Shown piece by piece: positions 14,733 through 57,982 of a DNA stretch of 64,000 nucleotides. Origin of the DNA: Henricia sp. BOLD:AAB3569 (lineage: Eukaryota > Echinodermata > Asteroidea > Spinulosida > Echinasteridae); contig JBBELK010000105.1 of assembly GCA_037783545.1 (NCBI GenBank), positions 434,001 through 498,000 of the forward strand. The letters run 5' to 3'. The position numbers and the translations under genes are program-made. Below the pieces are notes generated by a model. That model was not told the DNA's origin and ran no database searches. It worked only from the letters and a program-made list of their open reading frames with translations. Every line of letters starts with the position of its first letter. Position 1 is the stretch's first letter.

Positions 14733-14892
14733 GTGATACCATTTCAGTGAATTGAAATGAGAGATTTGAAATGAACGCTTCTTTATTTTATAAACACTGC
14801 GTATTGCTTTATAAGCTCAACCAAAATTAGCATAAATATTAACCGTAGTTAATTGAAAACGGCTTTTACAAAAATTACCCAGAGTGTTTCAG

Positions 14893-17795: not shown

Positions 17796-20700
17796 AATTT
17801 TCCAAATTTCCTATTTTATTTTCTGGATGACCAGTCAAGGTTAAATTCAAGGAATATCATCTATGGGTCCTAAGCAACATTTCCTGCAATTTTAAGATAA
17901 ATCTAAATCATCAAATTTTTTGCCAAATTACAAGGGGTTTTTAATAGCCCATCAATTTTTATCAAAATTGGCCAAAAATTGATGTTTTTGAAAATGTCTT
18001 AGAAATGACTCATAATGAAAATTTAGCCCGTCTGGAACCTTATTTCTAAGAAAAATTAAAATTTGGCAAAAAAACGACAAATTTTCTCAAAATCTAATTT
18101 GTTTTCAAATTTCATATTTTATTTTCTGGATGACCAGTCAATGTTAAATTCAAGGTATATCATCTATGGGTCCTCAGCAACATTTCCTGCAATTTTAAGG
18201 AAAATCTAAATCATAACATTTTTGGCCAAAAATTAAAAAAATCACAAGGGGTTAGCCCATCAATTTTTATCAAAATTGGCCAAAAATTGACGTTTTTGAA
18301 AATGTCTTAGAAATGACTCATAATGAAAATTTAGACTGTCTGGAACCTTATTTCTAAGAAAAATTGACAATTTGGCAAAAATTCAACCAATTTTCTCAAA
18401 ATCTAAAAACTTTTCAAAATTTCATATTTTATTTTCTGGATGACCAGTCAGTGTTAAATTCAAGGTATCTCATCTATGGGTCCTAAGCAACATTTCCTGC
18501 AACTTTAAGGAAAATCTAAATCATAACATTTTTGGCCAAAAATTAAAAAAATCAATTTTTATCAAAATTGGCCAAAAATTGACGTTTTTGAAAATGTCTT
18601 AGAAATGACTCATAATGAAAATTTAGACTGTCTGGAACCTTATTTCTAAGAAAAATGGACAATTTGGCCAAAATTCAACAAATTTTCTCAAAATCTAAAA
18701 ACTTTTCAAAATTTCATATTTTATTTTCTGGATGACCAGTCAATGTTAAATTCAAGGTATATCATCTATGGGTCCTAAGCAACATTTCCTGCAATTTTAA
18801 GGAAAATCTAAATCATAACATTTTTGGCCAAAAATTGAAAAAATCACAAGGGGTTAGCCCATCAATTTTTATCAAAATTGGCCAAAAATTGACGTTTTTG
18901 AAAATGTCTTAGAAATGACTCATAATGAAAATTTAGACAAATTTTCTCAAAATCTAAATCATTTCCCAAATTTCATATTTTATTTTCTGGATGACCAGTC
19001 AATGTTAAATTCAAGGTATATCATCTATGGGTCCTAAGCAACATTTCCTGCAATTTTAAGGAAAATCTAAATCATAACCTTTTTGGCCAAAAATTAAAAA
19101 AATCACAAGGGGTTAGCCCATCAATTTTTATCAAAATTGGCCAAAAATTGACGTTTTTGAAAATGTCTTAGAAATGACTCATAATGAAAATTTAGACTGT
19201 CTGGAACCTTATTTCTAAGAAAAATTGACAATTTGGCAAAAATTCAACCAATTTTCTCAAAATCTAAAAACTTTTCAAAATTTCATATTTTATTTTCTGG
19301 ATGACCAGTCAATGTTAAATTCAAGGTATATCATCTATGGGTCCTAAGCAAAATTTCCTGCAATTTTAAGGAAAATCTAAATCATAACATTTTTTGCCAA
19401 AAATTAAAAAAATCACAAGGGGTTAGCCAATCAATTTTTATCAAAATTGGCCAAAAATTGACGTTTTTGAAAATGTCTTAGAAATGACTCATAATGAAAA
19501 TTTAGACTGTCTGGAACCTTATTTCTAAGAAAAATGGACAATTTGGCCAAAATTCAACCAATTTTCTCAAAATCTAAAAACTTTTCAAAATTTCATATTT
19601 TATTTTCTGGATGACCAGTCAGTGTTAAATTCAAGGTATCTCATCTATGGGTCCTAAGCAACATTTCCTGCAATTTTAAGGAAAATCTAAATCATAAAAT
19701 TTTTGGCCAAAAATTAAAAAAATCACAATTTTTATCAAAATTGGCCAAAAATTGACGTTTTTGAAAATGTCTTAGAAATGACTCATAATGAAAATTTAGA
19801 CTGTCTGGAACCTTATTTCTAAGAAAAATGGACAATTTGGCCAAAATTCAACCAATTTTCTCAAAATCTAAAAACTTTTCAAAATTTCATATTTTATTTT
19901 CTGGATGACCAGTCAGTGTTAAATTCAAGGTATCTCATCTATGGGTCCTAAGCAACATTTCCTGCAATTTTAAGGAAAATCTAAATCATAAAATTTTTGG
20001 CCAAAAATTAAAAAAATCACAATTTTTATCAAAATTGGCCAAAAATTGACGTTTTTGAAAATGTCTTAGAAATGACTCATAATGAAAATTTAGACAAATT
20101 TTCTCAAAATCTAAATCATTTCCCAAATTTCATATTTTATTTTCTGGATGACCAGTCAATGTTAAATTCAAGGTATATCATCTATGGGTCCTAAGCAACA
20201 TTTCCTGCAATTTTAAGAAAAATCTAAATCATAACATTTTTGGCCAAAAATTAAACAAATCACAATTTTTATCAAAATTGGCCAAAAATTGACGTTTTTA
20301 AAAATGTCTTAGAAATGACTCATAATGAAAATTTAGACTGTCTGGAACCTTATTTCTAAGAAAAATGGACAATTTGGCCAAAATTCAACAAATTTTCTCA
20401 AAATCTAAAAACTTTTCAAAATTTCATATTTTATTTTCTGGATGACCAGTCAATGTTAAATTCAAGGTATATCATCTATGGGTCCTAAGCAACATTTCCT
20501 GCAATTTTAAGGAAAATCTAAATCATAACATTTTTGGCCAAAAATTGAAAAAATCACAAGGGGTTAGCCCATCAATTTTTATCAAAATTGGCCAAAAATT
20601 GACGTTTTTGAAAATGTCTTAGAAATGACTCATAATGAAAATTTAGACAAATTTTCTCAAAATCTAAATCATTTCCCAAATTTCATATTTTATTTTCTGG

Positions 20701-23700
20701 ATGACCAGTCAATGTTAAATTCAAGGTATATCATCTATGGGTCCTAAGCAACATTTCCTGCAATTTTAAGGAAAATCTAAATCATAACCTTTTTGGCCAA
20801 AAATTAAAAAAATTACAATTTTTATCAAAATTGGCCAAAAATTGACGTTTTTGAAAATGTCTTAGAAATGACTCATAATGAAAATTTAGACTGTCTGGAA
20901 CCTTATTTCTAAGAAAAATTGACAATTTGGCAAAAATTCAACCAATTTTCTCAAAATCTAAAAACTTTTCAAAATTTCATATTTTATTTTCTGGATGACC
21001 AGTCAATGTTAAATTCAAGGTATATCATCTATGGGTCCTAAGCAAAATTTCCTGCAATTTTAAGGAAAATCTAAATCATAACATTTTTTGCCAAAAAATA
21101 AAAAAAACACAAGGGGTTAGCCAATCAATTTTTATCAAAATTGGCCAAAAATTGACGTTTTTGAAAATGTCTTAGAAATGACTCATAATGAAAATTTAGA
21201 CTGTCTGGAACCTTATTTCTAAGAAAAATGGACAATTTGGCCAAAATTCAACCAATTTTCTCAAAATCTAAAAACTTTTCAAAATTTCATATTTTATTTT
21301 CTGGATGACCAGTCAGTGTTAAATTCAAGGTATCTCATCTATGGGTCCTAAGCAACATTTCCTGCAATTTTAAGGAAAATCTAAATCATAAAATTTTTGG
21401 CCAAAAATTAAAAAAATCACAATTTTTATCAAAATTGGCCAAAAATTGACGTTTTTGAAAATGTCTTAGAAATGACTCATAATGAAAATTTAGACTGTCT
21501 GGAACCTTATTTCTAAGAAAAATGGACAATTTGGCCAAAATTCAACCAATTTTCTCAAAATCTAAAAACTTTTCAAAATTTCATATTTTATTTTCTGGAT
21601 GACCAGTCAGTGTTAAATTCAAGGTATCTCATCTATGGGTCCTAAGCAACATTTCCTGCAATTTTAAGGAAAATCTAAATCATAAAATTTTTGGCCAAAA
21701 ATTAAAAAAATCACAATTTTTATCAAAATTGGCCAAAAATTGACGTTTTTGAAAATGTCTTAGAAATGACTCATAATGAAAATTTAGACTGTCTGGAACC
21801 TTATTTCTAAGAAAAATTGACAATTTGGCAAAAATTCAACCAATTTTCTCAAAATCTAAAAACTTTTCAAAATTTCATATTTTATTTTCTGGATGACCAG
21901 TCAGTGTTAAATTCAAGGTATCTCATCTATGGGTCCTAAGCAACATTTCCTGCAATTTTAAGGAAAATCTAAATCATAACCTTTTTGGCCAAAAATTAAA
22001 AAAATCACAAGGGGTTAGCCCATCAATTTTTATCAAAATTGGCCAAAAATTGACGTTTTTGAAAATGTCTTAGAAATGACTCATAATGAAAATTTAGACT
22101 GTCTGGAACCTTATTTCTAAGAAAAATTGACAATTTGGCAAAAATTCAACCAATTTTCTCAAAATCTAAAAACTTTTCAAAATTTCATATTTTATTTTCT
22201 GGATGACCAGTCAATGTTAAATTCAAGGTATATCATCTATGGGTCCTAAGCAAAATTTCCTGCAATTTTAAGGAAAATCTAAATCATAACATTTTTTGCC
22301 AAAAATTAAAAAAATCACAAGGGGTTAGCCAATCAATTTTTATCAAAATTGGCCAAAAATTGACGTTTTTGAAAATGTCTTAGAAATGACTCATAATGAA
22401 AATTTAGACTGTCTGGAACCTTATTTCTAAGAAAAATGGACAATTTGGCCAAAATTCAACCAATTTTCTCAAAATCTAAAAACTTTTCAAAATTTCATAT
22501 TTTATTTTCTGGATGACCAGTCAGTGTTAAATTCAAGGTATCTCATCTATGGGTCCTAAGCAACATTTCCTGCAATTTTAAGGAAAATCTAAATCATAAA
22601 ATTTTTGGCCAAAAATTAAAAAAATCACAATTTTTATCAAAATTGGCCAAAAATTGACGTTTTTGAAAATGTCTTAGAAATGACTCATAATGAAAATTTA
22701 GACTGTCTGGAACCTTATTTCTAAGAAAAATGGACAATTTGGCCAAAATTCAACCAATTTTCTCAAAATCTAAAAACTTTTCAAAATTTCATATTTTATT
22801 TTCTGGATGACCAGTCAGTGTTAAATTCAAGGTATCTCATCTATGGGTCCTAAGCAACATTTCCTGCAATTTTAAGGAAAATCTAAATCATAAAATTTTT
22901 GGCCAAAAATTAAAAAAATCACAATTTTTATCAAAATTGGCCAAAAATTGACGTTTTTGAAAATGTCTTAGAAATGACTCATAATGAAAATTTAGACTGT
23001 CTGGAACCTTATTTCTAAGAAAAATTGACAATTTGGCAAAAATTCAACCAATTTTCTCAAAATCTAAAAACTTTTCAAAATTTCATATTTTATTTTCTGG
23101 ATGACCAGTCAGTGTTAAATTCAAGGTATCTCATCTATGGGTCCTAAGCAACATTTCCTGCAACTTTAAGGAAAATCTAAATCATAACATTTTTGGCCAA
23201 AAATTGAAAAAATCACAAGGGGTTAGCCCATCAATTTTTATCAAAATTGGCCAAAAATTGACGTTTTTGAAAATGTCTTAGAAATGACTCATAATGAAAA
23301 TTTAGACAAATTTTCTCAAAATCTAAATCATTTCCCAAATTTCATATTTTATTTTCTGGATGACCAGTCAATGTTAAATTCAAGGTATATCATCTATGGG
23401 TCCTAAGCAACATTTCCTGCAATTTTAAGGAAAATCTAAATCATAACATTTTTGGCCAAAAATTAAAAAAATCACAAGGGGTTCCCCTATCAATTTTTAT
23501 CAAAATTGGCCAAAAATTGACGTTTTTGAAAATGTCTTAGAAATGACTCATAATGAAAATTTAGACTGTCTGGAACCTTATTTCTAAGAAAAATTGACAA
23601 TTTGGCCATAATTCAACAAATTTTCTCAAAATCTAAAAACTTTTCAAAATTTCATATTTTATTTTCTGGATGACCAGTCAATGTTAAATTCAAGGTATAT

Positions 23701-26700
23701 CATCTATGGGTCCTAAGCAACATTTCCTGCAATTTTAAGGAAAATCTAAATCATAACATTTTCGGCCAAAAATTAAAAAAATCACAAGGGGTTAGCCCAT
23801 CAATTTTTATCAAAATTGGCCAAAAATTGACGTTTTTGAAAATGTCTTAGAAATGACTCATAATGAAAATTTAGACTGTCTGGAACCTTATTTCTAAGAA
23901 AAATTGACAATTTGGCCATAATTCAACAAATTTTCTCAAAATCTAAAAACTTTTCAAAATTTCATATTTTATTTTCTGGATGACCAGTCAATGTTAAATT
24001 CAAGGTATATCATCTATGGGTCCTAAGCAACATTTCCTGCAATTTTAAGGAAAATCTAAATCATAACATTTTCGGCCAAAAATTAAAAAAATCACAAGGG
24101 GTTAGCCCATCAATTTTTATCAAAATTACCAAAAATTGACGTTTTTGAAAATGTCTTAGAAATGACTCATAATGAAAATTTAGACTGTCTGGAACCTTAT
24201 TTCTAAGAAAAATGGACAATTTGGCCAAAATTCAACCAATTTTCTCAAAATCTAAATCATTTCCCAAATTTCATATTTTATTTTCTGGATGACCAGTCAA
24301 TGTTAAAATCAAGGTATATCATCTATGGGTCCTAAGCAACATTTCCTGCAATTTTAAGGAAAATCTAAATCATAACATTTTTGGCCAAAAATTAAAAAAA
24401 TCACAAGGGGTTAGCCTATCAATTTTTATCAAAATTGGCCAAAAATTGACGTTTTTGAAAATGTCTTAGAAATGACTCATAATGAAAATTTAGACTGTCT
24501 GGAACCTTATTTCTAAGAAAAAATGGACAATTTGACCAAAATTCAACCAATTTTCTCAAAATCTAAATCATTTCCCAAATTTCATATTTTATTTTCTGGA
24601 TGACCAGTCAATGTTAAATTCAAGGTATATCATCTATGGGTCCTAAGCAACATTTCCTGCAATTTTAAGGAAAATCTAAATCATAACATTTTTGGCCAAA
24701 AATTGAAAAAATCACAAGGGGTTAGCCCATCAATTTTTATCAAAATTGGCCAAAAATTGACGTTTTTGAAAATGTCTTAGAAATGACTCATAATGAAAAT
24801 TTAGACTGTCCGGAACCTTATTTCTAAGAAAAATTGACAATTTGGCAAAAATTCAACCAATTTTCTCAAAATCTAAAAACTTTTCAAAATTTCATATTTT
24901 ATTTTCTGGATGACCAGTCAGTGTTAAATTCAAGGTATCTCATCTATGGGTCCTAAGCAACATTTCCTGCAACTTTAAGGAAAATCTAAATCATAACATT
25001 TTTGGCCAAAAATTGAAAAAATCACAAGGGGTTAGCCCATCAATTTTTATCAAAATTGGCCAAAAATTGACGTTTTTGAAAATGTCTTAGAAATGACTCA
25101 TAATGAAAATTTAGACAAATTTTCTCAAAATCTAAATCATTTCCCAAATTTCATATTTTATTTTCTGGATGACCAGTCAATGTTAAATTCAAGGTATATC
25201 ATCTATGGGTCCTAAGCAACATTTCCTGCAATTTTAAGGAAAATCTAAATCATAACATTTTTGGCCAAAAATTAAAAAAATCACAAGGGGTTCCCCTATC
25301 AATTTTTATCAAAATTGGCCAAAAATTGACGTTTTTGAAAATGTCTTAGAAATGACTCATAATGAAAATTTAGACTGTCTGGAACCTTATTTCTAAGAAA
25401 AATTGACAATTTGGCCATAATTCAACAAATTTTCTCAAAATCTAAAAACTTTTCAAAATTTCATATTTTATTTTCTGGATGACCAGTCAATGTTAAATTC
25501 AAGGTATATCATCTATGGGTCCTAAGCAACATTTCCTGCAATTTTAAGGAAAATCTAAATCATAACATTTTCGGCCAAAAATTAAAAAAATCACAAGGGG
25601 TTAGCCCATCAATTTTTATCAAAATTGGCCAAAAATTGACGTTTTTGAAAATGTCTTAGAAATGACTCATAATGAAAATTTAGACTGTCTGGAACCTTAT
25701 TTCTAAGAAAAATTGACAATTTGGCCATAATTCAACAAATTTTCTCAAAATCTAAAAACTTTTCAAAATTTCATATTTTATTTTCTGGATGACCAGTCAA
25801 TGTTAAATTCAAGGTATATCATCTATGGGTCCTAAGCAACATTTCCTGCAATTTTAAGGAAAATCTAAATCATAACATTTTCGGCCAAAAATTAAAAAAA
25901 TCACAAGGGGTTAGCCCATCAATTTTTATCAAAATTACCAAAAATTGACGTTTTTGAAAATGTCTTAGAAATGACTCATAATGAAAATTTAGACTGTCTG
26001 GAACCTTATTTCTAAGAAAAATGGACAATTTGGCCAAAATTCAACCAATTTTCTCAAAATCTAAATCATTTCCCAAATTTCATATTTTATTTTCTGGATG
26101 ACCAGTCAATGTTAAAATCAAGGTATATCATCTATGGGTCCTAAGCAACATTTCCTGCAATTTTAAGGAAAATCTAAATCATAACATTTTTGGCCAAAAA
26201 TTAAAAAAATCACAAGGGGTTAGCCTATCAATTTTTATCAAAATTGGCCAAAAATTGACGTTTTTGAAAATGTCTTAGAAATGACTCATAATGAAAATTT
26301 AGACTGTCTGGAACCTTATTTCTAAGAAAAATGGACAATTTGACCAAAATTCAACCAATTTTCTCAAAATCTAAATCATTTCCCAAATTTCATATTTTAT
26401 TTTCTGGATGACCAGTCAATGTTAAATTCAAGGTATATCATCTATGGGTCCTAAGCAACATTTCCTGCAATTTTAAGGAAAATCTAAATCATAACATTTT
26501 TGGCCAAAAATTGAAAAAATCACAAGGGGTTAGCCCATCAATTTTTATCAAAATTGGCCAAAAATTGACGTTTTTGAAAATGTCTTAGAAATGACTCATA
26601 ATGAAAATTTAGACTGTCTGGAACCTTATTTCTAAGAAAAATTGACAATTTGGCCATAATTCAACAAATTTTCTCAAAATCTAAAAACATTTCAAAATTT

Positions 26701-28984
26701 CATATTTTATTTTCTGGATGACCAGTCAATGTTAAATTCAAGGTATATCATCTATGGGTCCTAAGCAACATTTCCTGCAATTTTAAGGAAAATCTAAATC
26801 ATAACATTTTTGGCCAAAAATTATCAAATTTTTGGCCAAAAATTAAAAATTATCAAAATTGGCCAAAAATTTACGTTTTTGAAAATGTCTTAGAAATGAC
26901 TCATAATGAAAATGTAGACTGTCCGGAACCTTATTTCTAAGAAAAATTGACAATTTGGCCAAAATTCAACCAATTTTCTCAAAATCTAAAAACTTTTCAA
27001 AATTTCATATTTTATTTTCTGGATGACCAGTCAATGTTAAATTCAAGGTATATCATCTATGGGTCCTAAGCAACATTTCCTGCAATTTTAAGGAAAATCT
27101 AAATCATAACATTTTTGGCCAAAAATTAAAAAAATCACAAGGGGTTAGCCCATCAATTTTTATCAAAATTGGCCAAAAATTGACGTTTTTGAAAATGTCT
27201 TAGAAATGACTCATAATGAAAATTTAGACTGTCTGGAACCTTATTTCTAAGAAAAATGGACAATTTGGCCATAATTCAACAAATTTTTTCAAAATCTAAA
27301 AACTTTTCAAAATTTCATATTTTATTTTCTGGATGACCAGTCAATGTTAAATTCAAGGTATATCATCTATGGGTCCTAAGCAACATTTCCTGCAATTTTA
27401 AGGAAAATCTAAATCATAACATTTTTGGCCAAAAATTAAAAAAATCACAAGGGGTTAGCCCATAAATTTTTATCAAAATTGGCCAAAAATTGACGTTTTT
27501 GAAAATGTCTTAGAAATGACTCATAATGAAAATTTAGACTGTCCGGAACCTTATTTCTAAGAAAAATTGACAATTTGGCCAAAATTCAACAAATTTTCTC
27601 AAAATCTAAAAACTTTTCAAAATTTCATATTTTATTTTCTGGATGACCAGTCAATGTTAAATTCAAGGTATATCATCTATGGGTCCTAAGCAACATTTCC
27701 TGCAATTTTAAGGAAAATCTAAATCATAACATTTTCGGCCAAAAATTAAAAAAATCACAAGGGGTTAGCCCATCAATTTTTATCAAAATTGGCAAAAAAT
27801 TGACGTTTTTGAAAATGTCTTAGAAATGACTCATAATGAAAATTTAGACTGTCCGGAACCTTATTTCTAAGAAAAATTGACAATTTGGCCAAAATTCAAC
27901 AAATTTTCTCAAAATCTAAAAACTTTTCAAAATTTCATATTTTATTTCTGGATGACCAGTCAATGTTAAATTCAAGGTATATCATCTATGGGTCCTAAGC
28001 AACATTTCCTGCAATTTTAAGGAAAATCTAAATCATAACATTTTTGGCCAAAAATTAAAAAAATCACAAGGGGTTAGCCCATCAATTTTTATCAAAATTG
28101 GCCAAAAATTGACGTTTTTGAAAATGTCTTAGAAATGACTCATAATGAAAATTTAGACTGTCTGGAACCTTATTTCTAAGAAAAATGGACAATTTGGCCA
28201 AAATTCAACAAATTTTCTCAAAATCTAAAAACTTTTCAAAATTTCATATTTTATTTTCTGGATGACCAGTCAATGTTAAATTCAAGGTATATCATCTATG
28301 GGTCCTAAGCAACATTTCCTGCAATTTTAAGGAAAATCTAAATCATAACATTTTTGGCCAAAAATTAAAAAAATCACAAGGGGTTAGTTAGCCCATCAAT
28401 TTTTATCAAAATTGGCCAAAAATTGACGTTTTTGAAAATGTCTTAGAAATGACTCATAATGAAAATTTAGACTGTCCGGAACCTTATTTCTAAGAAAAAT
28501 TGACAATTTGGCCAAAATTCAACCAATTTTCTCAAAATCTAAAAACTTTTCAAAATTTCATATTTTATTTTCTGGATGACCAGTCAATGTTAAATTCAAG
28601 GTATATCATCTATGGGTCCTAAGCAACATTTCCTGCAATTTTAAGGAAAATCTAAATCATAACATTTTTGGCCAAAAATTAAAAAAATCACAAGGGGTTA
28701 GTTAGCCCATCAATTTTTATCAAAATTGGCCAAAAATTGACGTTTTTGAAAATGTCTTAGAAATGACTCATAATGAAAATTTAGACTGTCCGGAACCTTA
28801 TTTCTAAGAAAAATTGACAATTTGGCCAAAATTCAACCAATTTTCTCAAAATCTAAAAACTTTTCAAAATTTCATATTTTATTTTCTGGATGACCAGTCA
28901 ATGTTAAATTCAAGGTATATCATCTATGGGTCCTAAGCAACATTTCCTGCAATTTTAAGGAAAATCTAAATCATAACATTTTTG

Positions 28985-29018
28985 GCAAAAATAATTGATG
29001 GGCTAACGCCCATCAATT
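28985..29018. repeat. Private hairpin in one satellite monomer
   Basis: Arms 28993-29003 (AATTGATGGGC) and 29008-29018 (GCCCATCAATT) are perfectly complementary with a TAAC loop. Other monomers have only the right arm here, so the left arm is a local inverted copy. Confidence 0.95.
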
Positions 29019-32000
29019 TTTATCAAAATTGGCCAAAAATTGACGTTTTTGAAAATGTCTTAGAAATGACTCATAATGAAAATTTAGACTGTCTGAAACC
29101 TTATTTCTAAGAAAAATGGACAATTTGGCCATAATTCAACAAATTTTCTCAAAATCTAAAAACTTTTCAAAATTCCATATTTTATTTTCTGGATGACCAG
29201 TCAATGTTAAATTCAAGGTATATCATCTATGGGTCCTAAGCAACATTTCCTGCAATTTTAAGGAAAATCTAAATCATAACATTTTCGGCCAAAAATTAAA
29301 AAAATCACAAGGGGTTAGCCCATCAATTTTTATCAAAATTGGCCAAAAATTGACGTTTTTGAAAATGTCTTAGAAATGACTCATAATGAAAATTTAGACT
29401 GTCTGGAACCTTATTTCTAAGAAAAATGGACAATTTGGCCATAATTCAACAAATTTTCTCAAAATCTAAAAACTTTTCAAAATTTCATATTTTATTTTCT
29501 GGATGACCAGTCAATGTTAAATTCAAGGTATATCATCTATGGGTCCTAAGCAACATTTCCTGCAATTTTAAGGAAAATCTAAATCATAACATTTTTGGCC
29601 AAAAATTAAAAAAATCACAAGGGGTTAGCCCATAAATTTTTATCAAAATTGGCCAAAAATTGACGTTTTTGAAAATGTCTTAGAAATGACTCATAATGAA
29701 AATTTAGACTGTCCGGAACCTTATTTCTAAGAAAAATTGACAATTTGGCCAAAATTCAACCAATTTTCTCAAAATCTAAAAACTTTTCAAAATTTCATAT
29801 TTTATTTTCTGGATGACCAGTCAATGTTAAATTCAAGGTATATCATCTATGGGTCCTAAGCAACATTTCCTGCAATTTTAAGGAAAATCTAAATCATAAC
29901 ATTTTCGGCCAAAAATTAAAAAAATCACAAGGGGTTAGCCCATCAATTTTTATCAAAATTGGCCAAAAATTGACGTTTTTGAAAATGTCTTAGAAATGAC
30001 TCATAATGAAAATTTAGACTGTCCGGAACCTTATTTCTAAGAAAAATTGACAATTTGGCCAAAATTCAACCAATTTTCTCAAAATCTAAAAACTTTTCAA
30101 AATTTCATATTTTATTTTCTGGATGACCAGTCAATGTTAAATTCAAGGTATATCATCTATGGGTCCTAAGCAACATTTCCTGCAATTTTAAGGAAAATCT
30201 AAATCATAACATTTTTGGCCAAAAATTGAAAAAATCACAAGGGGTTAGCCCATCAATTTTTATCAAAATTGGCCAAAAATTGACGTTTTTGAAAATGTCT
30301 TAGAAATGACTCATAATGAAAATTTAGACTGTCTGGAACCTTATTTCTAAGAAAAATTGACAATTTGGCCATAATTCAACAAATTTTCTCAAAATCTAAA
30401 AACTTTTCAAAATTTCATATTTTATTTTCTGGATGACCAGTCAATGTTAAATTCAAGGTATATCATCTATGGGTCCTAAGCAACATTTCCTGCAATTTTA
30501 AGGAAAATCTAAATCATAACATTTTCGGCCAAAAATTAAAAAAATCACAAGGGGTTAGCCCATCAATTTTTATCAAAATTGGCCAAAAATTGACGTTTTT
30601 GAAAATGTCTTAGAAATGACTCATAATGAAAATTTAGACTGTCCGGAACCTTATTTCTAAGAAAAATTGACAATTTGGCCAAAATTCAACCAATTTTCTC
30701 AAAATCTAAAAACTTTTCAAAATTTCATATTTTATTTTCTGGATGACCAGTCAATGTTAAATTCAAGGTATATCATCTATGGGTCCTAAGCAACATTTCC
30801 TGCAATTTTAAGGAAAATCTAAATCATAACATTTTTGGCCAAAAATTATCAAATTTTTGGCCAAAAATTAAAAATTATCAAAATTGGCCAAAAATTGACG
30901 TTTTTGAAAATGTCTTGGAAATGACTCATAATGAAAATGTAGACTGTCCGGAACCTTATTTCTAAGAAAAATTGACAATTTGGCCAAAATTCAACCAATT
31001 TTCTCAAAATCTAAAAACTTTTCAAAATTTCATATTTTATTTTCTGGATGACCAGTCAATGTTAAATTCAAGGTATATCATCTATGGGTCCTAAGCAACA
31101 TTTCCTGCAATTTTAAGGAAAATCTAAATCATAACATTTTTGGCCAAAAATTACAAAAATCACAAATCACAAATCAAAAATCACAAATCACAAATTTTTA
31201 TCAAAATTGGCAAAAAATTGACGTTTTTGAAAATGTCTTAGAAATGACTCATAATGAAAATTTAGACTGTCTGGAACCTTATTTCTAAGAAAAATGGACA
31301 ATTTGGCCAAAATTCAACCAATTTTCTCAAAATCTAAAAACTTTTCAAAATTTCATATTTTATTTTCTGGATGACCAGTCAATGTTAAATTCAAGGTATA
31401 TCATCTATGGGTCCTAAGCAACATTTCCTGCAATTTTAAGGAAAATCTAAATCATAACATTTTTGGCCAAAAATTAAAAAAATCACAAGGGGTTAGCCCA
31501 TCAATTTTTATCAAAATTGGCCAAAAATTGACGTTTTTGAAAATGTCTTAGAAATGACTCATAATGAAAATTTAGACTGTCTGGAACCTTATTTCTAAGA
31601 AAAATTGACAATTTGGCCATAATTCAACAAATTTTCTCAAAATCTAAAAACTTTTCAAAATTTCATATTTTATTTTCTGGATGACCAGTCAATGTTAAAT
31701 TCAAGGTATATCATCTATGGGTCCTAAGCAACATTTCCTGCAATTTTAAGGAAAATCTAAATCATAACATTTTTGGCCAAAAATTAAAAAATCACAAGGG
31801 GTTAGCCCATCAATTTTTATCAAAATTGGCCAAAAATTGACGTTTTTGAAAATGTCTTAGAAATGACTCATAATGAAAATTTAGACTGTCCGGAACCTTA
31901 TTTCTAAGAAAAATTGACAATTTGGCCAAAATTCAACAAATTTTCTCAAAATCTAAAAACTTTTCAAAATTTCATATTTTATTTTCTGGATGACCAGTCA

Positions 32001-41000: not shown

Positions 41001-44000
41001 CTGGATGACCAGTCAATGTTAAATTCAAGGTATATCATCTATGGGTCCTAAGCAACATTTCCTGCAATTTTAAGGAAAATCTAAATCATAACATTTTCGG
41101 CCAAAAATTAAAAAAATCACAAGGGGTTAGCCCATCAATTTTTATCAAAATTGGCCAAAAATTGACGTTTTTGAAAATGTCTTAGAAATGACTCATAATG
41201 AAAATTTAGACAGTCCGGAACCTTATTTCTAAGAAAAATTGACAATTTGGCCAAAATTCAACCAATTTTCTCAAAATCTAAAAACTTTTCAAAATTTCAT
41301 ATTTTATTTTCTGGATGACCAGTCAATGTTAAATTCAAGGTATATCATCTATGGGTCCTAAGCAACATTTCCTGCAATTTTAAGGAAAATCTAAATCATA
41401 ACATTTTTGGCCAAAAATTGAAAAAATCACAAGGGGTTAGCCCATCAATTTTTATCAAAATTGGCCAAAAATTGACGTTTTTGAAAATGTCTTAGAAATG
41501 ACTCATAATGAAAATTTAGACTGTCTGGAACCTTATTTCTAAGAAAAATTGACAATTTGGCCATAATTCAACAAATTTTCTCAAAATCTAAAAACTTTTC
41601 AAAATTTCATATTTTATTTTCTGGATGACCAGTCAATGTTAAATTCAAGGTATATCATCTATGGGTCCTAAGCAACATTTCCTGCAATTTTAAGGAAAAT
41701 CTAAATCATAACATTTTTGGCCAAAAATTATCAAATTTTTGGCCAAAAATTAAAAATTATCAAAATTGGCCAAAAATTGACGTTTTTGAAAATGTCTTAG
41801 AAATGACTCATAATGAAAATGTAGACTGTCCGGAACCTTATTTCTAAGAAAAATTGACAATTTGGCCAAAATTCAACCAATTTTCTCAAAATCTAAAAAC
41901 TTTTCAAAATTTCATATTTTATTTTCTGGATGACCAGTCAATGTTAAATTCAAGGTATATCATCTATGGGTCCTAAGCAACATTTCCTGCAATTTTAAGG
42001 AAAATCTAAATCATAACATTTTTGGCCAAAAATTAAAAAAATCACAAGGGGTTAGCCCATAAATTTTTATAAAAATTGGCCAAAAATTGACGTTTTTGAA
42101 AATGTCTTAGAAATGACTCATAATGAAAATTTAGACTGTCCGGAACCTTATTTCTAAGAAAAATTGACAATTTGGCCAAAATTCAACAAATTTTCTCAAA
42201 ATCTAAAAACTTTTCAAAATTTCATATTTTATTTTCTGGATGACCAGTCAATGTTAAATTCAAGGTATATCATCTATGGGTCCTAAGCAACATTTCCTGC
42301 AATTTTAAGGAAAATCTAAATCATAACATTTTCGGCCAAAAATTAAAAAAATCACAAGGGGTTAGCCCATCAATTTTTATCAAAATTGGCCAAAAATTCA
42401 CGTTTTTGAAAATGTCTTAGAAATGACTCATAATGAAAATTTAGACTGTCCGGAACCTTATTTCTAAGAAAAATTGACAATTTGGCCAAAATTCAACCAA
42501 TTTTCTCAAAATCTAAAAACTTTTCAAAATTTCATATTTTATTTTCTGGATGACCAGTCAATGTTAAATTCAAGGTATATCATCTATGGGTCCTAAGCAA
42601 CATTTCCTGCAATTTTAAGGAAAATCTAAATCATAACATTTTTGGCCAAAAATTAAAAAAATCACAAGGGGTTAGCCCATCAATTTTTATCAAAATTGGC
42701 CAAAAATTGACGTTTTTGAAAATGTCTTAGAAATGACTCATAATGAAAATTTAGACTGTCTGGAACCTTATTTCTAAGAAAAATGGACAATTTGGCCATA
42801 ATTCAACAAATTTTCTCAAAATCTAAAAACTTTTCAAAATTTCATATTTTATTTTCTGGATGACCAGTCAATGTTAAATTCAAGGTATATCATCTATGGG
42901 TCCTAAGCAACATTTCCTGCAATTTTAAGGAAAATCTAAATCATAACATTTTTGGCCAAAAATTAAAAAAATCACAAGGGGTTAGCCCATCAATTTTTAT
43001 CAAAATTGGCAAAAAATTGACGTTTTTGAAAATGTCTTAGAAATGACTCATAATGAAAATTTAGACTGTCTGGAACCTTATTTCTAAGAAAAATGGACAA
43101 TTTGGCCATAATTCAACAAATTTTCTCAAAATCTAAAAACTTTTCAAAATTTCATATTTTATTTTCTGGATGACCAGTCAATGTTAAATTCAAGGTATAT
43201 CATCTATGGGTCCTAAGCAACATTTCCTGCAATTTTAAGGAAAATCTAAATCATAACATTTTTGGCCAAAAATTAAAAAAATCACAAGGGGTTAGCCCAT
43301 AAATTTTTATCAAAATTGGCCAAAAATTGACGTTTTTGAAAATGTCTTAGAAATGACTCATAATGAAAATTTAGACTGTCCGGAACCTTATTTCTAAGAA
43401 AAATTGACAATTTGGCCAAAATTCAACAAATTTTCTCAAAATCTAAAAACTTTTCAAAATTTCATATTTTATTTTCTGGATGACCAGTCAATGTTAAATT
43501 CAAGGTATATCATCTATGGGTCCTAAGCAACATTTCCTGCAATTTTAAGGAAAATCTAAATCATAACATTTTCGGCCAAAAATTAAAAAAATCACAAGGG
43601 GTTAGCCCATCAATTTTTATCAAAATTGGCCAAAAATTGACGTTTTTGAAAATGTCTTAGAAATGACTCATAATGAAAATTTAGACTGTCCGGAACCTTA
43701 TTTCTAAGAAAAATTGACAATTTGGCCAAAATTCAACCAATTTTCTCAAAATCTAAAAACTTTTCAAAATTTCATATTTTATTTTCTGGATGACCAGTCA
43801 ATGTTAAATTCAAGGTATATCATCTATGGGTCCTAAGCAACATTTCCTGCAATTTTAAGGAAAATCTAAATCATAACATTTTTGGCCAAAAATTAAAAAA
43901 ATCACAAGGGGTTAGCCCATCAATTTTTATCAAAATTGGCCAAAAATTGACGTTTTTGAAAATGTCTTAGAAATGACTCATAATGAAAATTTAGACTGTC

Positions 44001-47000
44001 TGGAACCTTATTTCTAAGAAAAATGGACAATTTGGCCATAATTCAACAAATTTTCTCAAAATCTAAAAACTTTTCAAAATTTCATATTTTATTTTCTGGA
44101 TGACCAGTCAATGTTAAATTCAAGGTATATCATCTATGGGTCCTAAGCAACATTTCCTGCAATTTTAAGGAAAATCTAAATCATAACATTTTTGGCCAAA
44201 AATTAAAAAAATCACAAGGGGTTAGCCCATCAATTTTTATCAAAATTGGCCAAAAATTGACGTTTTTGAAAATGTCTTAGAAATGACTCATAATGAAAAT
44301 TTAGACTGTCCGGAACCTTATTTCTAAGAAAATTTGACAATTTGGCCAAAATTCAACCAATTTTCTCAAAATCTAAAAACTTTTCAAAATTTCATATTTT
44401 ATTTTCTGGATGACCAGTCAATGTTAAATTCAAGGTATATCATCTATGGGTCCTAAGCAACATTTCCTGCAATTTTAAGGAAAATCTAAATCATAACATT
44501 TTTGGCCAAAAATTAAAAAAATCACAAGGGGTTAGCCCATCAATTTTTATCAAAATTGGCCAAAAATTGACGTTTTTGAAAATGTCTTAGAAATGACTCA
44601 TAATGAAAATTTAGACTGTCTGGAACCTTATTTCTAAGAAAAATTGACAATTTGGCCAAAATTCAACCAATTTTCTCAAAATCTAAAAACCTTTCAAAAT
44701 TTCATATTTTATTTTCTGGATGACCAGTCAATGTTAAATTCAAGGTATATCATCTATGGGTCCTAAGCAACATTTCCTGCAATTTTAAGGAAAATCTAAA
44801 TCATAACATTTTTGGCCAAAAATTAAAAAAATCACAAGGGGTTAGCCCATCAATTTTTATCAAAATTGGCCAAAAATTGACGTTTTTGAAAATGTCTTAG
44901 AAATGACTCATAATGAAAATTTAGACTGTCTGGAACCTTATTTCTAAGAAAAATTGACAATTTGGCCAAAATTCAACAAATTTTCTCAAAATCTAAAAAC
45001 TTTTCAAAATTTCATATTTTATTTTCTGGATGACCAGTCAATGTTAAATTCAAGGTATATCATCTATGGGTCCTAAGCAACATTTCCTGCAATTTTAAGG
45101 AAAATCTAAATCATAACATTTTTGGCCAAAAATTAAAAAAATCACAAGGGGCCAAAAATTGGCCAAAAATTGACGTTTTTGAAAATGTCTTAGAAATGAC
45201 TCATAATGAAAATTTAGACTGTCCGGAACCTTATTTCTAAGAAAAATTGACAATTTGGCCAAAATTCAACAAATTTTCTCAAAATCTAAAAACTTTTCAA
45301 AATTTCATATTTTATTTTCTGGATGACCAGTCAATGTTAAATTCAAGGTATATCATCTATGGGTCCTAAGCAACATTTCCTGCAATTTTAAGGAAAATCT
45401 AAATCATAACATTTTTGGCCAAAAATTAAAAAAATCACAAGGGGTTAGCCCATCAATTTTTATCAAAATTGGCCAAAAATTGACGTTTTTGAAAATGTCT
45501 TAGAAATGACTCATAATGAAAATTTAGACTGTCTGGAACCTTATTTCTAAGAAAAATTGACAATTTGGCCAAAATTCAACAAATTTTCTCAAAATCTAAA
45601 AACTTTTCAAAATTTCATATTTTATTTTCTGGATGACCAGTCAATGTTAAATTCAAGGTATATCATCTATGGGTCCTAAGCAACATTTCCTGCAATTTTA
45701 AGGAAAATCTAAATCATAACATTTTTGGCCAAAAATTAAAAAAATCACAAGGGGCCAAAAATTGGCCAAAAATTGACGTTTTTGAAAATGTCTTAGAAAT
45801 GACTCATAATGAAAATTTAGACTGTCCGGAACCTTATTTCTAAGAAAAATTGACAATTTGGCCAAAATTCAACAAATTTTCTCAAAATCTAAAAACTTTT
45901 CAAAATTTCATATTTTATTTTCTGGATGACCAGTCAATGTTAAATTCAAGGTATATCATCTATGGGTCCTAAGCAACATTTCCTGCAATTTTAAGGAAAA
46001 TCTAAATCATAACATTTTCGGCCAAAAATTAAAAAAATCACAAGGGGTTAGCCCATCAATTTTTATCAAAATTGGCCAAAAATTGACGTTTTTGAAAATG
46101 TCTTAGAAATGACTCATAATGAAAATTTAGACTGTCCGGAACCTTATTTCTAAGAAAAATTGACAATTTAGCCAAAATTCAACCAATTTTCTCAAAATCT
46201 AAAAACTTTTCAAAATTTCATATTTTATTTTCTGGATGACCAGTCAATGTTAAATTCAAGGTATATCATCTATGGGTCCTAAGCAACATTTCCTGCAATT
46301 TTAAGGAAAATCTAAATCATAACATTTTTGGCCAAAAATTAAAAAAATCACAAGGGGTTAGCCCATCAATTTTTATCAAAATTGGCCAAAAATTGACGTT
46401 TTTGAAAATGTCTTAGAAATGACTCATAATGAAAATTTAGACTGTCTGGAACCTTATTTCTAAGAAAAATGGACAATTTGGCCATAATTCAACAAATTTT
46501 CTCAAAATCTAAAAACTTTTCAAAATTTCATATTTTATTTTCTGGATGACCAGTCAATGTTAAATTCAAGGTATATCATCTATGGGTCCTAAGCAACATT
46601 TCCTGCAATTTTAAGGAAAATCTAAATCATAACATTTTCGGCCAAAAATTAAAAAAATCACAAGGGGTTAGCCCATCAATTTTTATCAAAATTGGCCAAA
46701 AATTGACGTTTTTGAAAATGTCTTAGAAATGACTCATAATGAAAATTTAGACTGTCCGGAACCTTATTTCTAAGAAAAATTGACAATTTGGCCAAAATTC
46801 AACCAATTTTCTCAAAATCTAAAAACTTTTCAAAATTTCATATTTTATTTTCTGGATGACCAGTCAATGTTAAATTCAAGGTATATCATCTATGGGTCCT
46901 AAGCAACATTTCCTGCAATTTTAAGGAAAATCTAAATCATAACATTTTTGGCCAAAAATTAAAAAAATCACAAGGGGTTAGCCCATCAATTTTTATCAAA

Positions 47001-47661
47001 ATTGGCCAAAAATTGACGTTTTTGAAAATGTCTTAGAAATGACTCATAATGAAAATTTAGACTGTCTGGAACCTTATTTCTAAGAAAAATGGACAATTTG
47101 GCCATAATTCAACAAATTTTCTCAAAATCTAAAAACTTTTCAAAATTTCATATTTTATTTTCTGGATGACCAGTCAATGTTAAATTCAAGGTATATCATC
47201 TATGGGTCCTAAGCAACATTTCCTGCAATTTTAAGGAAAATCTAAATCATAACATTTTTGGCCAAAAATTAAAAAAATCACAAGGGGTTAGCCCATCAAT
47301 TTTTATCAAAATTGGCCAAAAATTGACGTTTTTGAAAATGTCTTAGAAATGACTCATAATGAAAATTTAGACTGTCCGGAACCTTATTTCTAAGAAAATT
47401 TGACAATTTGGCCAAAATTCAACCAATTTTCTCAAAATCTAAAAACTTTTCAAAATTTCATATTTTATTTTCTGGATGACCAGTCAATGTTAAATTCAAG
47501 GTATATCATCTATGGGTCCTAAGCAACATTTCCTGCAATTTTAAGGAAAATCTAAATCATAACATTTTTGGCCAAAAATTAAAAAAATCACAAGGGGTTA
47601 GCCCATCAATTTTTATCAAAATTGGCCAAAAATTGACGTTTTTGAAAATGTCTTAGAAATG

Positions 47662-50600
47662 ACTCATAATGAAAATTTAGACTGTCTGGAACCTTATTTC
47701 TAAGAAAAATTGACAATTTGGCCAAAATTCAACCAATTTTCTCAAAATCTAAAAACCTTTCAAAATTTCATATTTTATTTTCTGGATGACCAGTCAATGT
47801 TAAATTCAAGGTATATCATCTATGGGTCCTAAGCAACATTTCCTGCAATTTTAAGGAAAATCTAAATCATAACATTTTTGGCCAAAAATTAAAAAAATCA
47901 CAAGGGGTTAGCCCATCAATTTTTATCAAAATTGGCCAAAAATTGACGTTTTTGAAAATGTCTTAGAAATGACTCATAATGAAAATTTAGACTGTCTGGA
48001 ACCTTATTTCTAAGAAAAATTGACAATTTGGCCAAAATTCAACAAATTTTCTCAAAATCTAAAAACTTTTCAAAATTTCATATTTTATTTTCTGGATGAC
48101 CAGTCAATGTTAAATTCAAGGTATATCATCTATGGGTCCTAAGCAACATTTCCTGCAATTTTAAGGAAAATCTAAATCATAACATTTTTGGCCAAAAATT
48201 AAAAAAATCACAAGGGGCCAAAAATTGGCCAAAAATTGACGTTTTTGAAAATGTCTTAGAAATGACTCATAATGAAAATTTAGACTGTCCGGAACCTTAT
48301 TTCTAAGAAAAATTGACAATTTGGCCAAAATTCAACAAATTTTCTCAAAATCTAAAAACTTTTCAAAATTTCATATTTTATTTTCTGGATGACCAGTCAA
48401 TGTTAAATTCAAGGTATATCATCTATGGGTCCTAAGCAACATTTCCTGCAATTTTAAGGAAAATCTAAATCATAACATTTTCGGCCAAAAATTAAAAAAA
48501 TCACAAGGGGTTAGCCCATCAATTTTTATCAAAATTGGCCAAAAATTGACGTTTTTGAAAATGTCTTAGAAATGACTCATAATGAAAATTTAGACTGTCC
48601 GGAACCTTATTTCTAAGAAAAATTGACAATTTAGCCAAAATTCAACCAATTTTCTCAAAATCTAAAAACTTTTCAAAATTTCATATTTTATTTTCTGGAT
48701 GACCAGTCAATGTTAAATTCAAGGTATATCATCTATGGGTCCTAAGCAACATTTCCTGCAATTTTAAGGAAAATCTAAATCATAACATTTTTGGCCAAAA
48801 ATTAAAAAAATCACAAGGGGTTAGCCCATCAATTTTTATCAAAATTGGCCAAAAATTGACGTTTTTGAAAATGTCTTAGAAATGACTCATAATGAAAATT
48901 TAGACTGTCTGGAACCTTATTTCTAAGAAAAATGGACAATTTGGCCATAATTCAACAAATTTTCTCAAAATCTAAAAACTTTTCAAAATTTCATATTTTA
49001 TTTTCTGGATGACCAGTCAATGTTAAATTCAAGGTATATCATCTATGGGTCCTAAGCAACATTTCCTGCAATTTTAAGGAAAATCTAAATCATAACATTT
49101 TTGGCCAAAAATTAAAAAAATCACAAGGGGTTAGCCCATCAATTTTTATCAAAATTGGCCAAAAATTGACGTTTTTGAAAATGTCTTAGAAATGACTCAT
49201 AATGAAAATTTAGACTGTCCGGAACCTTATTTCTAAGAAAATTTGACAATTTGGCCAAAATTCAACCAATTTTCTCAAAATCTAAAAACTTTTCAAAATT
49301 TCATATTTTATTTTCTGGATGACCAGTCAATGTTAAATTCAAGGTATATCATCTATGGGTCCTAAGCAACATTTCCTGCAATTTTAAGGAAAATCTAAAT
49401 CATAACATTTTTGGCCAAAAATTAAAAAAATCACAAGGGGTTAGCCCATCAATTTTTATCAAAATTGGCCAAAAATTGACGTTTTTGAAAATGTCTTAGA
49501 AATGACTCATAATGAAAATTTAGACTGTCTGGAACCTTATTTCTAAGAAAAATTGACAATTTGGCCAAAATTCAACCAATTTTCTCAAAATCTAAAAACC
49601 TTTCAAAATTTCATATTTTATTTTCTGGATGACCAGTCAATGTTAAATTCAAGGTATATCATCTATGGGTCCTAAGCAACATTTCCTGCAATTTTAAGGA
49701 AAATCTAAATCATAACATTTTTGGCCAAAAATTAAAAAAATCACAAGGGGTTAGCCCATCAATTTTTATCAAAATTGGCCAAAAATTGACGTTTTTGAAA
49801 ATGTCTTAGAAATGACTCATAATGAAAATTTAGACTGTCTGGAACCTTATTTCTAAGAAAAATTGACAATTTGGCCAAAATTCAACAAATTTTCTCAAAA
49901 TCTAAAAACTTTTCAAAATTTCATATTTTATTTTCTGGATGACCAGTCAATGTTAAATTCAAGGTATATCATCTATGGGTCCTAAGCAACATTTCCTGCA
50001 ATTTTAAGGAAAATCTAAATCATAACATTTTTGGCCAAAAATTAAAAAAATCACAAGGGGTTAGCCCATCAATTTTTATCAAAATTGGCCAAAAATTGAC
50101 GTTTTTGAAAATGTCTTAGAAATGACTCATAATGAAAATTTAGACTGTCTGGAACCTTATTTCTAAGAAAATTTGAAATTTGGCCAAAAAAGGACAAATT
50201 TTCTCAAAATCTAAAAAAATTCAAATTTCCCATTTTATTTTCTGGATGACCAGTCAAGGTTAAATTCAAGGAATATCATCTATGGGTCCTAAGCAACATT
50301 TCCTGCAATTTTAAGATAAATCATCAAATGACTCATAATGAAAATTTAGACTGTCTGGAACCTTATTTCTAAGAAAAATTGACAATTTGGCCAAAATTCA
50401 ACCAATTTTCTCAAAATCTAAAAACCTTTCAAAATTTCATATTTTATTTTCTGGATGACCAGTCAATGTTAAATTCAAGGTATATCATCTATGGGTCCTA
50501 AGCAACATTTCCTGCAATTTTAAGGAAAATCTAAATCATAACATTTTTGGCCAAAAATTAAAAAAATCACAAGGGGTTAGCCCATCAATTTTTATCAAAA

Positions 50601-52999
50601 TTGGCCAAAAATTGACGTTTTTGAAAATGTCTTAGAAATGACTCATAATGAAAATTTAGACTGTCTGGAACCTTATTTCTAAGAAAAATTGACAATTTGG
50701 CCAAAATTCAACAAATTTTCTCAAAATCTAAAAACTTTTCAAAATTTCATATTTTATTTTCTGGATGACCAGTCAATGTTAAATTCAAGGTATATCATCT
50801 ATGGGTCCTAAGCAACATTTCCTGCAATTTTAAGGAAAATCTAAATCATAACATTTTTGGCCAAAAATTAAAAAAATCACAAGGGGCCAAAAATTGGCCA
50901 AAAATTGACGTTTTTGAAAATGTCTTAGAAATGACTCATAATGAAAATTTAGACTGTCCGGAACCTTATTTCTAAGAAAAATTGACAATTTGGCCAAAAT
51001 TCAACAAATTTTCTCAAAATCTAAAAACTTTTCAAAATTTCATATTTTATTTTCTGGATGACCAGTCAATGTTAAATTCAAGGTATATCATCTATGGGTC
51101 CTAAGCAACATTTCCTGCAATTTTAAGGAAAATCTAAATCATAACATTTTCGGCCAAAAATTAAAAAAATCACAAGGGGTTAGCCCATCAATTTTTATCA
51201 AAATTGGCCAAAAATTGACGTTTTTGAAAATGTCTTAGAAATGACTCATAATGAAAATTTAGACTGTCCGGAACCTTATTTCTAAGAAAAATTGACAATT
51301 TAGCCAAAATTCAACCAATTTTCTCAAAATCTAAAAACTTTTCAAAATTTCATATTTTATTTTCTGGATGACCAGTCAATGTTAAATTCAAGGTATATCA
51401 TCTATGGGTCCTAAGCAACATTTCCTGCAATTTTAAGGAAAATCTAAATCATAACATTTTTGGCCAAAAATTAAAAAAATCACAAGGGGTTAGCCCATCA
51501 ATTTTTATCAAAATTGGCCAAAAATTGACGTTTTTGAAAATGTCTTAGAAATGACTCATAATGAAAATTTAGACTGTCTGGAACCTTATTTCTAAGAAAA
51601 ATGGACAATTTGGCCATAATTCAACAAATTTTCTCAAAATCTAAAAACTTTTCAAAATTTCATATTTTATTTTCTGGATGACCAGTCAATGTTAAATTCA
51701 AGGTATATCATCTATGGGTCCTAAGCAACATTTCCTGCAATTTTAAGGAAAATCTAAATCATAACATTTTTGGCCAAAAATTAAAAAAATCACAAGGGGT
51801 TAGCCCATCAATTTTTATCAAAATTGGCCAAAAATTGACGTTTTTGAAAATGTCTTAGAAATGACTCATAATGAAAATTTAGACTGTCCGGAACCTTATT
51901 TCTAAGAAAATTTGACAATTTGGCCAAAATTCAACCAATTTTCTCAAAATCTAAAAACTTTTCAAAATTTCATATTTTATTTTCTGGATGACCAGTCAAT
52001 GTTAAATTCAAGGTATATCATCTATGGGTCCTAAGCAACATTTCCTGCAATTTTAAGGAAAATCTAAATCATAACATTTTTGGCCAAAAATTAAAAAAAT
52101 CACAAGGGGTTAGCCCATCAATTTTTATCAAAATTGGCCAAAAATTGACGTTTTTGAAAATGTCTTAGAAATGACTCATAATGAAAATTTAGACTGTCTG
52201 GAACCTTATTTCTAAGAAAAATTGACAATTTGGCCAAAATTCAACCAATTTTCTCAAAATCTAAAAACCTTTCAAAATTTCATATTTTATTTTCTGGATG
52301 ACCAGTCAATGTTAAATTCAAGGTATATCATCTATGGGTCCTAAGCAACATTTCCTGCAATTTTAAGGAAAATCTAAATCATAACATTTTTGGCCAAAAA
52401 TTAAAAAAATCACAAGGGGTTAGCCCATCAATTTTTATCAAAATTGGCCAAAAATTGACGTTTTTGAAAATGTCTTAGAAATGACTCATAATGAAAATTT
52501 AGACTGTCTGGAACCTTATTTCTAAGAAAAATTGACAATTTGGCCAAAATTCAACAAATTTTCTCAAAATCTAAAAACTTTTCAAAATTTCATATTTTAT
52601 TTTCTGGATGACCAGTCAATGTTAAATTCAAGGTATATCATCTATGGGTCCTAAGCAACATTTCCTGCAATTTTAAGGAAAATCTAAATCATAACATTTT
52701 TGGCCAAAAATTAAAAAAATCACAAGGGGTTAGCCCATCAATTTTTATCAAAATTGGCCAAAAATTGACGTTTTTGAAAATGTCTTAGAAATGACTCATA
52801 ATGAAAATTTAGACTGTCTGGAACCTTATTTCTAAGAAAATTTGAAATTTGGCCAAAAAAGGACAAATTTTCTCAAAATCTAAAAAAATTCAAATTTCCC
52901 ATTTTATTTTCTGGATGACCAGTCAAGGTTAAATTCAAGGAATATCATCTATGGGTCCTAAGCAACATTTCCTGCAATTTTAAGATAAATCATCAAATT
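47662..52999. repeat. 2.67-kb higher-order duplication at the right end of the array
   Basis: Diagnostic variants repeat at a constant offset of about 2,668 bp: the GGGGCCAAAAATTGG junction (48216 and 50884), AAGAAAATTTGACAATTT (49237 and 51905) and AATTTGAAATTTGG (50170 and 52839). The first copy ends at about 50330, where an edge-type monomer is fused to a core monomer. The left boundary given is approximate. Confidence 0.85.
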
Positions 53000-53199
53000 T
53001 TTGGCCAAAAATTAAAATAATTACAAGGGGTTAGTCCAGCAATTTTTATCAAAATTGGCCAAAAATTGATGTTTTTGAAAATGTCTTAGAAATGACTCAT
53101 AATGAAAATTTAGCCCGTCTGGAACCTTATTTCTAAGAAAAATTTTGCCAAAAAACCAACAAATTTTCTTAAAATCTGAAAATTTTCCAAATTTCCTAT

Positions 53200-53205
53200 T
53201 TTATT
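53200..53205 (-). promoter_or_regulatory. Candidate poly(A) signal for PAXX in the last satellite monomer
   Basis: AATAAA on the - strand, about 252 bp after the PAXX stop and inside the diverged terminal monomer. It is the first one met downstream of the stop in my reading. The same hexamer is in every monomer. Use by PAXX is inferred. The 53217-53456 stretch between array and stop codon holds no other feature. Confidence 0.45.
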
Positions 53206-53456
53206 TACTGGATGATAATGACGAATTAGCTTTCCACTTGGGCAACATACATGTGCACAAACGTTCAAGCAAAAACGCCTTTGGTTAGTTGTCTGGTTCC
53301 ATGCAAAACACTACATCAACTCAATACCTGATGAGTAACAGTGACCAGCGCAACCGTGCCCTGTTGGCTAGACCGAGTTTGATTGGAATCAAACGTTCTT
53401 TTGACATCAATGTATCAGACAAAGTGGTATATTTTCAAACAGCAAGCACTGTGATC

Positions 53457-57425: not shown

Positions 57426-57611
57426 TTTTTGTCAAATATCAACACAAACATCCAGAAAAAAGGGACACGTCTCGACTCCGCGTACAAAAAACGTGAACAT
57501 GTCTATCTAGCTGGTCGAGTTCTGTTGAAGCGCCCTCTCTTGGCCAAAAACTTTATGATTCAGATTTTCTTTTAAAAAAAATTCATTTGTATTTTTGTCT
57601 AAACTAGCAAA

Positions 57612-57860: not shown

Positions 57861-57982
57861 ATTGCAACACTACAGTTAAACGATAAAAATAAAAACCTTA
57901 CATCACATATAATATAGTACATTCTCTTGATTAATGTTTCATTGATGCAGATGAGTATTTTTTAATTGTTACTTTACGCATA

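What the first reader, a model, noticed from the sequence alone, without database searches (positions are those of the whole stretch)
17797..53216. 35-kb uninterrupted satellite array between two convergent genes
About 115-120 head-to-tail monomers with no inserted element, while flanking introns are crowded with MITEs and SINEs. Absence of insertions and near identity of inner units suggest active homogenisation. Its position between the 3' ends of the SRCR gene and PAXX, not in an obvious gene desert, is unusual.
Basis: seen in the sequence. Interest (0 to 1): 0.75.

Follow-up and report, generated by a model that had tools for sequence, protein, structure and literature searches.

The report
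Layered gene-side satellite array
A 35-kilobase stretch of one 310-letter DNA unit repeated about 117 times sits between ordinary genes in what is probably a sea star; it is one of many such arrays in that genome, and its make-up suggests that a repeat variant shared with an array near by replaced the middle of an array of another variant.

Summary
In detail: window 17798-53215 is an uninterrupted head-to-tail array, 117 monomer matches, modal unit 310 bp. It is not a lone oddity. The satellite or its more distant relatives were seen on 26 contigs, and a 35-base core has 2,220 exact copies in the 740.7-Mb assembly. Less ordinary is the anatomy. The first and last monomers are closer to another subfamily (B, 297 bp, which has an array of its own on contig C19); nearly all between is subfamily A. 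A 40-base mark of this interior (A1) has 140 copies genome-wide; 138 lie here and in one other array locus, about 448 kb away on the same contig in opposite orientation, counting three contigs that carry that locus. 108 of 109 monomers find their nearest relative inside the array, and exact block duplications up to 2.7 kb occur. Best reading: a dispersed satellite, homogenised within arrays and exchanged locally, whose A1 block displaced a B array. No function is shown. New member of a known kind. Read support and misassembly could not be tested, and no second haplotype through the array was found.

The parts
17798..53215 (+). satellite array, 117 monomer matches, modal unit 310 bp
17798..18100 (+). 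left terminal monomer, closer to subfamily B (14 B, 5 A, 1 other of 20 diagnostic sites); change to A between 18100 and 18114
18114..50146 (+). subfamily A (variant A1) interior, monomers m2-m105 and most of m106
50190..50325 (+). internal B stretch: second copy of the right-hand A/B change, ending at an out-of-phase joint (209-bp monomer)
47657..52998 (+). exact tandem duplication, unit 2,669 bp, 2,673 bp identical, 4-bp microhomology AAAT at the joint
50330..52815 (+). subfamily A stretch, later part of m107 to earlier part of m115
52859..53215 (+). right terminal B (end of m115 and m116; m116: 12 B, 4 A, 1 other of 17 readable sites)
57577..57880 (-). isolated diverged relative of the monomer, about 80% identical over about 200 bp, antisense, near the PAXX-like exon
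14327..14752 (+). last SRCR exon found of the left neighbour gene
56061..56273 (-). PAXX-like exon, below Pfam cut-off

Best explanation
This is one array of a dispersed, AT-rich satellite DNA family (unit about 300 bp) of a probable sea star. Shown: the array has a B-A1-B layout, with about one B monomer at the left end and just over one at the right; the A1 mark is almost confined to this array and to one other array locus about 448 kb away on the same contig in opposite orientation; monomers are most similar to others of the same array; exact block duplications exist. Inferred: a short B array stood here; an A1 segment made at, or shared with, the near-by array entered it by homologous exchange (a circle or ectopic repair, since the orientations are opposite) and grew by unequal exchange and by tandem duplication at microhomology, leaving B only at the ends, where homogenisation is weakest. 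No gene-regulatory or centromere role is shown; the default is neutral or selfish turnover.
For: End monomers are 96.3% and 97.5% to the B consensus against 93.3% to A; a B array lies at C19; diagnostic letters change inside m1 and m115. A1 40-mer: 140 copies in the assembly; 73 window, 53 C204, 10 C105 start, 2 C216 = 138, and 0 in six other arrays counted, while the family core 35-mer has 2,220. Longest exact match of the window array to other DNA: 431-492 bp at the three copies of that locus, at most 233 bp in 11 other fetched sets. 109 of 115 window monomers are closer to that locus than to five other arrays, 2 tie, 4 (m1, m55, m106, m115) are not. 108 of 109 monomers are nearest to one in the same array. 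284 maximal exact self-repeat pairs of 300 bp or more, longest 2,673 bp, with AAAT at its joint. The partner locus differs in array length between contigs: 3.24 kb (C216), 19.0 kb plus insert (C204), at least 3.66 kb cut by the contig end (C105). A review says homogenisation is less efficient at array ends (PMC10048060, passages seen).
Against: Direction of transfer is not shown. The A1 mark rests mainly on one substitution. One search compares 76 monomers of the A1 locus with 80 of five arrays, but 56 of the 76 come from one contig. The two changes lie at different phases (between 288 and 303 on the left, between 216 and 261 on the right), not the single phase that one crossover predicts. m1 carries 5 A letters of 20, m116 4 of 17, so the ends are not pure B; and B is not shown to be older than A. 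Array-specific similarity is not universal: nearest neighbour in the same array for 4 of 11 monomers in C105 start, 10 of 13 and 0 of 11 in the two C204 parts (those are copies of one locus), 6 of 9 in C216, 17 of 17, 15 of 15, 19 of 19, 8 of 9 and 15 of 16 in five others. The haplotig C216 stops 535 bp left of the array, so the array is seen once only.
Confidence: 0.6

Rival explanations
1. The array is the expanded central repeat of a mobile element (Helentron or MITE-like), which placed it here.
For: Array starts share nearly one phase (286-291) at the window, at the C105-start locus and at C384 although the flanks differ; a CGAATT hexamer spans the left edge (17794) and another stands 6 bp outside the right edge (53222); oyster Helentron elements carry such repeats (PMC7492417, passages including parts of the abstract).
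Against: Within 4 kb on each side (less at contig ends) the window array shares with the other sampled arrays only satellite and dispersed repeats of up to 541 bp. Other array ends sit at many phases (20, 46, 104, 130, 139, 152, 173, 257; some after deletions or at inversion joints). In genome searches with the two flanks the listed rows hold no other copy of them, apart from a dispersed repeat of about 160 bp (the listing is capped).
Confidence: 0.12
2. A1 was already present at both loci, by descent from one local variant, and was amplified at each without a later transfer.
For: Both loci are on one contig and both hold the same two variant classes at sites 288-289, as an inherited mixture would.
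Against: B-like monomers flank A1 at the window while the other locus has other, more diverged end monomers; an identical 310-bp monomer is shared by window and C204.
Confidence: 0.2
3. Assembly artefact: the length of the array or the A/B joints are mis-built.
For: Exact repeats of up to 2.7 kb; arrays at the start of C22, C105 and C239 and at the end of C329 coincide with contig ends; no second haplotype runs through this array.
Against: Sequence that is not satellite continues on both sides in one contig; the A/B changes lie inside monomers in phase.
Confidence: 0.12
4. The array is a functional element (centromere, boundary or factor-binding platform; a TGACTCAT site recurs in the unit).
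For: The stretch with the AP-1-like site is the least variable across ten arrays (the AP-1 motif is recalled).
Against: More diverged relatives have CTCCTAAC-type letters there, so the site looks recent; low variation is expected between young relatives; arrays are dispersed, several on one contig (C23).
Confidence: 0.05

Closest known systems
Dispersed satellites of the oyster Crassostrea gigas (CgiSat01 and others; PMC8268682, passages seen)
   Same: arrays scattered through the assembled genome; longest standalone array 232 monomers, about 40 kb (that one holds an assembly gap)
   Different: 91.4% of CgiSat01 cases are tied to mobile elements there; no such link was found here; shorter unit
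Layered expansion of centromeric satellites (named in PMC10910784, two passages seen; human alpha satellite recalled)
   Same: one subfamily in the middle, another at both edges
   Different: a 35-kb array beside genes, no centromere evidence; about one monomer of the other subfamily on each side; relative age not shown
Euchromatic 1.688 satellites on the Drosophila X (recalled; paper not held)
   Same: local spread of array variants between sites on one chromosome is proposed there
   Different: different sequence and host; array lengths were not compared

Membership tests
satellite DNA | head-to-tail units of more than 60 bp in an array | tested here: met
satellite DNA | same unit at several genomic places | tested here: met
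   the unit or its relatives on 26 contigs
satellite DNA | concerted evolution: units more alike within an array than between arrays | tested here: met
   for the window: 0.980 within, 0.951-0.976 to nine others; 108 of 109 nearest neighbours inside; not met for the parts of the C105-start locus, which are copies of each other
satellite DNA | heterochromatic state | not testable with these tools
   no chromatin data
Helentron or MITE central repeats | recurring flanking modules around arrays | tested here: not met
   limited to 4 kb of flank and to listed rows
centromeric satellite | CENP-A binding or one major site per chromosome | not testable with these tools
   no ChIP, no chromosome map; several arrays on one contig (C23) speak against it
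layered satellite array | older subfamily on both sides of a younger core | tested here: inconclusive
   B-like ends on both sides, but that B is older than A is not shown: at several diagnostic sites more distant arrays have the A letter

The most novel reading that the evidence does not exclude
Satellite arrays can be transplanted as blocks over hundreds of kilobases along one chromosome and recombine, in either orientation, into a resident array of another subfamily, replacing it from within; this array would be a frozen case with both joints preserved.
Probability: 0.3. Interest if true: 0.6.

Novelty: new member of a known kind. Interest (0 to 1): 0.36.

Why it matters
How satellites move between sites and replace each other is mostly inferred from bulk data. 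Here two subfamilies, both joints, a candidate partner locus on the same contig and length-variable copies of that locus are visible in assembled sequence, so local exchange can be tested in one animal and its relatives. It would not change what satellites are known to be.

Tried and rejected
Internal half-unit duplication of the 310-bp monomer: the best half-to-half score was reached by 23 of 100 randomised sequences, rejected. A protected protein-binding box: rejected as evidence, since none of 20 A/B differences falling in a 43-bp stretch has a chance near 5% for a window fixed beforehand (own arithmetic), and more diverged relatives lack the site. Mobile-element ends: array starts first looked phase-locked but other ends are not. 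At the C105-start locus the apparent start follows an inverted-repeat insertion, with another short satellite piece beyond it. Non-LTR retrotransposon remnant at 17.2-17.8 kb: suspected by eye, no Pfam hit in two frames. Edge against interior identity in ten array parts: lower at the window (92.3 and 96.7 against 98.9), at one end of C105 start, of C204b and of C216; not lower in the other six; that test dropped units outside 280-330 bp, so partial or strongly diverged end units are missing from it. A count of B copies genome-wide was asked once, not answered, and not repeated. No paper on sea-star satellites of this kind stood out in the listings (15 of 46 shown; 10 of 846 shown); no such paper was opened, and that is no proof of absence, as only open-licence papers are held.

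Dropped rows: the nearest-neighbour test used 109 of 115 window monomers (280-330 bp only). The array was not searched for in any other species.

Full report
The array. Tandem Repeats Finder and an anchor search find an unbroken head-to-tail array at window 17798-53215. The consensus unit is 310 bp. Of 115 spacings between anchors 75 are exactly 310 bp; the others run from 209 to 323 bp. No foreign element interrupts it. All 18 units shorter than 300 bp lie among m3-m25 (13) and m90-m109 (5).

Where it lies. The genome holds 740.7 Mb in 2,104 contigs; the window is C105:434001-498000. A mitochondrial COX1 reads through with the echinoderm code, and ND1 lies antisense upstream of it (Pfam E 6.8e-52), which is the sea-star gene order as I recall it; the tRNA search there printed nothing. 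So a sea star is likely, the species unknown. The left neighbour is an SRCR gene whose last exon found ends at 14752 (+); on the right, on the - strand, are a weakly supported PAXX and a PIF1-like helicase.

A dispersed family. Searches with three stretches found the satellite or its relatives on 24 contigs, a pattern search on two more; the listings are capped. Several places are single matches at about 80%, so not each is shown to be an array. A 35-base core has 1,288 + 932 = 2,220 exact copies and no copy of the reversed control; at one unit each that is about 0.7 Mb, a lower bound. Units of about 287-291, 297, 307-310 and 320 bp occur. So an array between genes is not exceptional here.

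Homogenisation. For 108 of 109 window monomers of 280-330 bp the nearest relative lies in the same array, where 109 of the 229 monomers compared come from; mean identity is 0.980 within the window array and 0.951-0.976 to the nine others. Other arrays vary: 17 of 17, 15 of 15, 19 of 19, 8 of 9 and 15 of 16 in five, 6 of 9 in C216, and 4 of 11, 10 of 13 and 0 of 11 in parts of the C105-start locus, which are copies of each other. Exact self-repeats of 300 bp or more make 284 pairs; the longest, 2,673 bp at a lag of 2,669, is a tandem duplication with AAAT shared at its joint, which leaves a 209-bp unit out of phase.

Two subfamilies. An array at C19:861-869 kb has 297-bp units that match the window's left edge at 94-95%. 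With 20 sites that separate the two consensus units, the first window monomer reads B at 14 of 20, the last at 12 of 17 readable sites, and m2 to m105 read A except for scattered single letters and deletions. The left change lies between 18100 and 18114. The right one lies between 52815 and 52859; a site between them reads A, but it reads A in both B ends too and so tells nothing. The 2,669-bp duplication carries a second copy of the right change at 50146-50190. B need not be older than A: sampled distant arrays share some letters with each.

A local variant. The interior carries a variant (A1). Its 40-base mark has 76 + 64 = 140 copies in the assembly. Counting in fetched DNA gives 73 in the window, 53 in C204, 10 at the start of C105 and 2 in C216, that is 138 of 140, and none in six other arrays counted. 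C105 start, C204 and C216 carry the same locus: aligned pieces next to the array are mostly 94-99% alike, and a stretch about 70 kb away matches at 93-97% in the same order. They are most likely haplotypes, three in number, or a large duplication. In C105 that locus lies about 448 kb left of the window array, in the opposite orientation. Longest exact matches agree, as do closest monomers (109 of 115).

Mechanism. Shown: layout, local variant, within-array similarity, block duplications, and different array lengths at the partner locus (3.24 kb; 19.0 kb with a 4.94-kb insert; at least 3.66 kb). Inferred: exchange between the two loci, entry of A1 into a B array, later growth. Opposite orientation makes simple sister-strand exchange unlikely as the carrier and fits a circle or ectopic repair. 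The two changes are at least 27 bases apart in phase, so one clean crossover does not suffice. Direction is open.

Known kinds. The array meets the tests of a satellite DNA. Scattered arrays are known in the oyster (PMC8268682, passages), and a review describes weak homogenisation at array ends (PMC10048060, passages). Carriage by a mobile element, as in oyster Helentrons (PMC7492417, passages), was looked for within 4 kb and not found. I rate it a new member of a known kind.

Limits. No reads, no chromatin, no chromosome map, no other species. The right flank has no second copy in the assembly apart from a dispersed repeat, and the haplotig C216 ends 535 bp before the array, so length and joints rest on one contig. 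Many genome searches did not complete, so the survey is partial.

Noticed in passing
window 15153-16639: 52-bp minisatellite, 28.6 copies, between the SRCR gene and the array; the C216 haplotig has a shorter version, about 600 bp by the alignment. Its unit and the satellite unit both hold TTGGCCAA.
   Followed up: partly
L058:1008-1266 (C204:1901008-1901266): A roughly 256-bp insertion present in C204 but absent from the colinear places in C105 and C216; 37 other listed rows match it at 95-99%: a young, probably mobile, small element.
   Followed up: no
G000:C955: Contig with three COX1 copies spaced exactly 16,221 bp apart: probably a mitochondrial genome assembled as a concatemer; a fourth copy lies on C2104.
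   Followed up: partly
G000:C105, C204, C216: Three versions of one locus in the assembly, mostly 94-99% alike: more than two haplotypes, or a large duplication.
   Followed up: partly
L037 (C19:860001-870000) near C19:863600; C329:5714634-5714716: Head-to-head inversions inside satellite arrays.
   Followed up: no
window 17415-17605: Inverted-repeat element (MITE-like, 27-bp perfect arm stretches) just left of the array.
   Followed up: no
window 10586-10754: Perfect 11-bp tandem repeat TATATTTTGAA, 15.4 copies, between SRCR exons.
   Followed up: no
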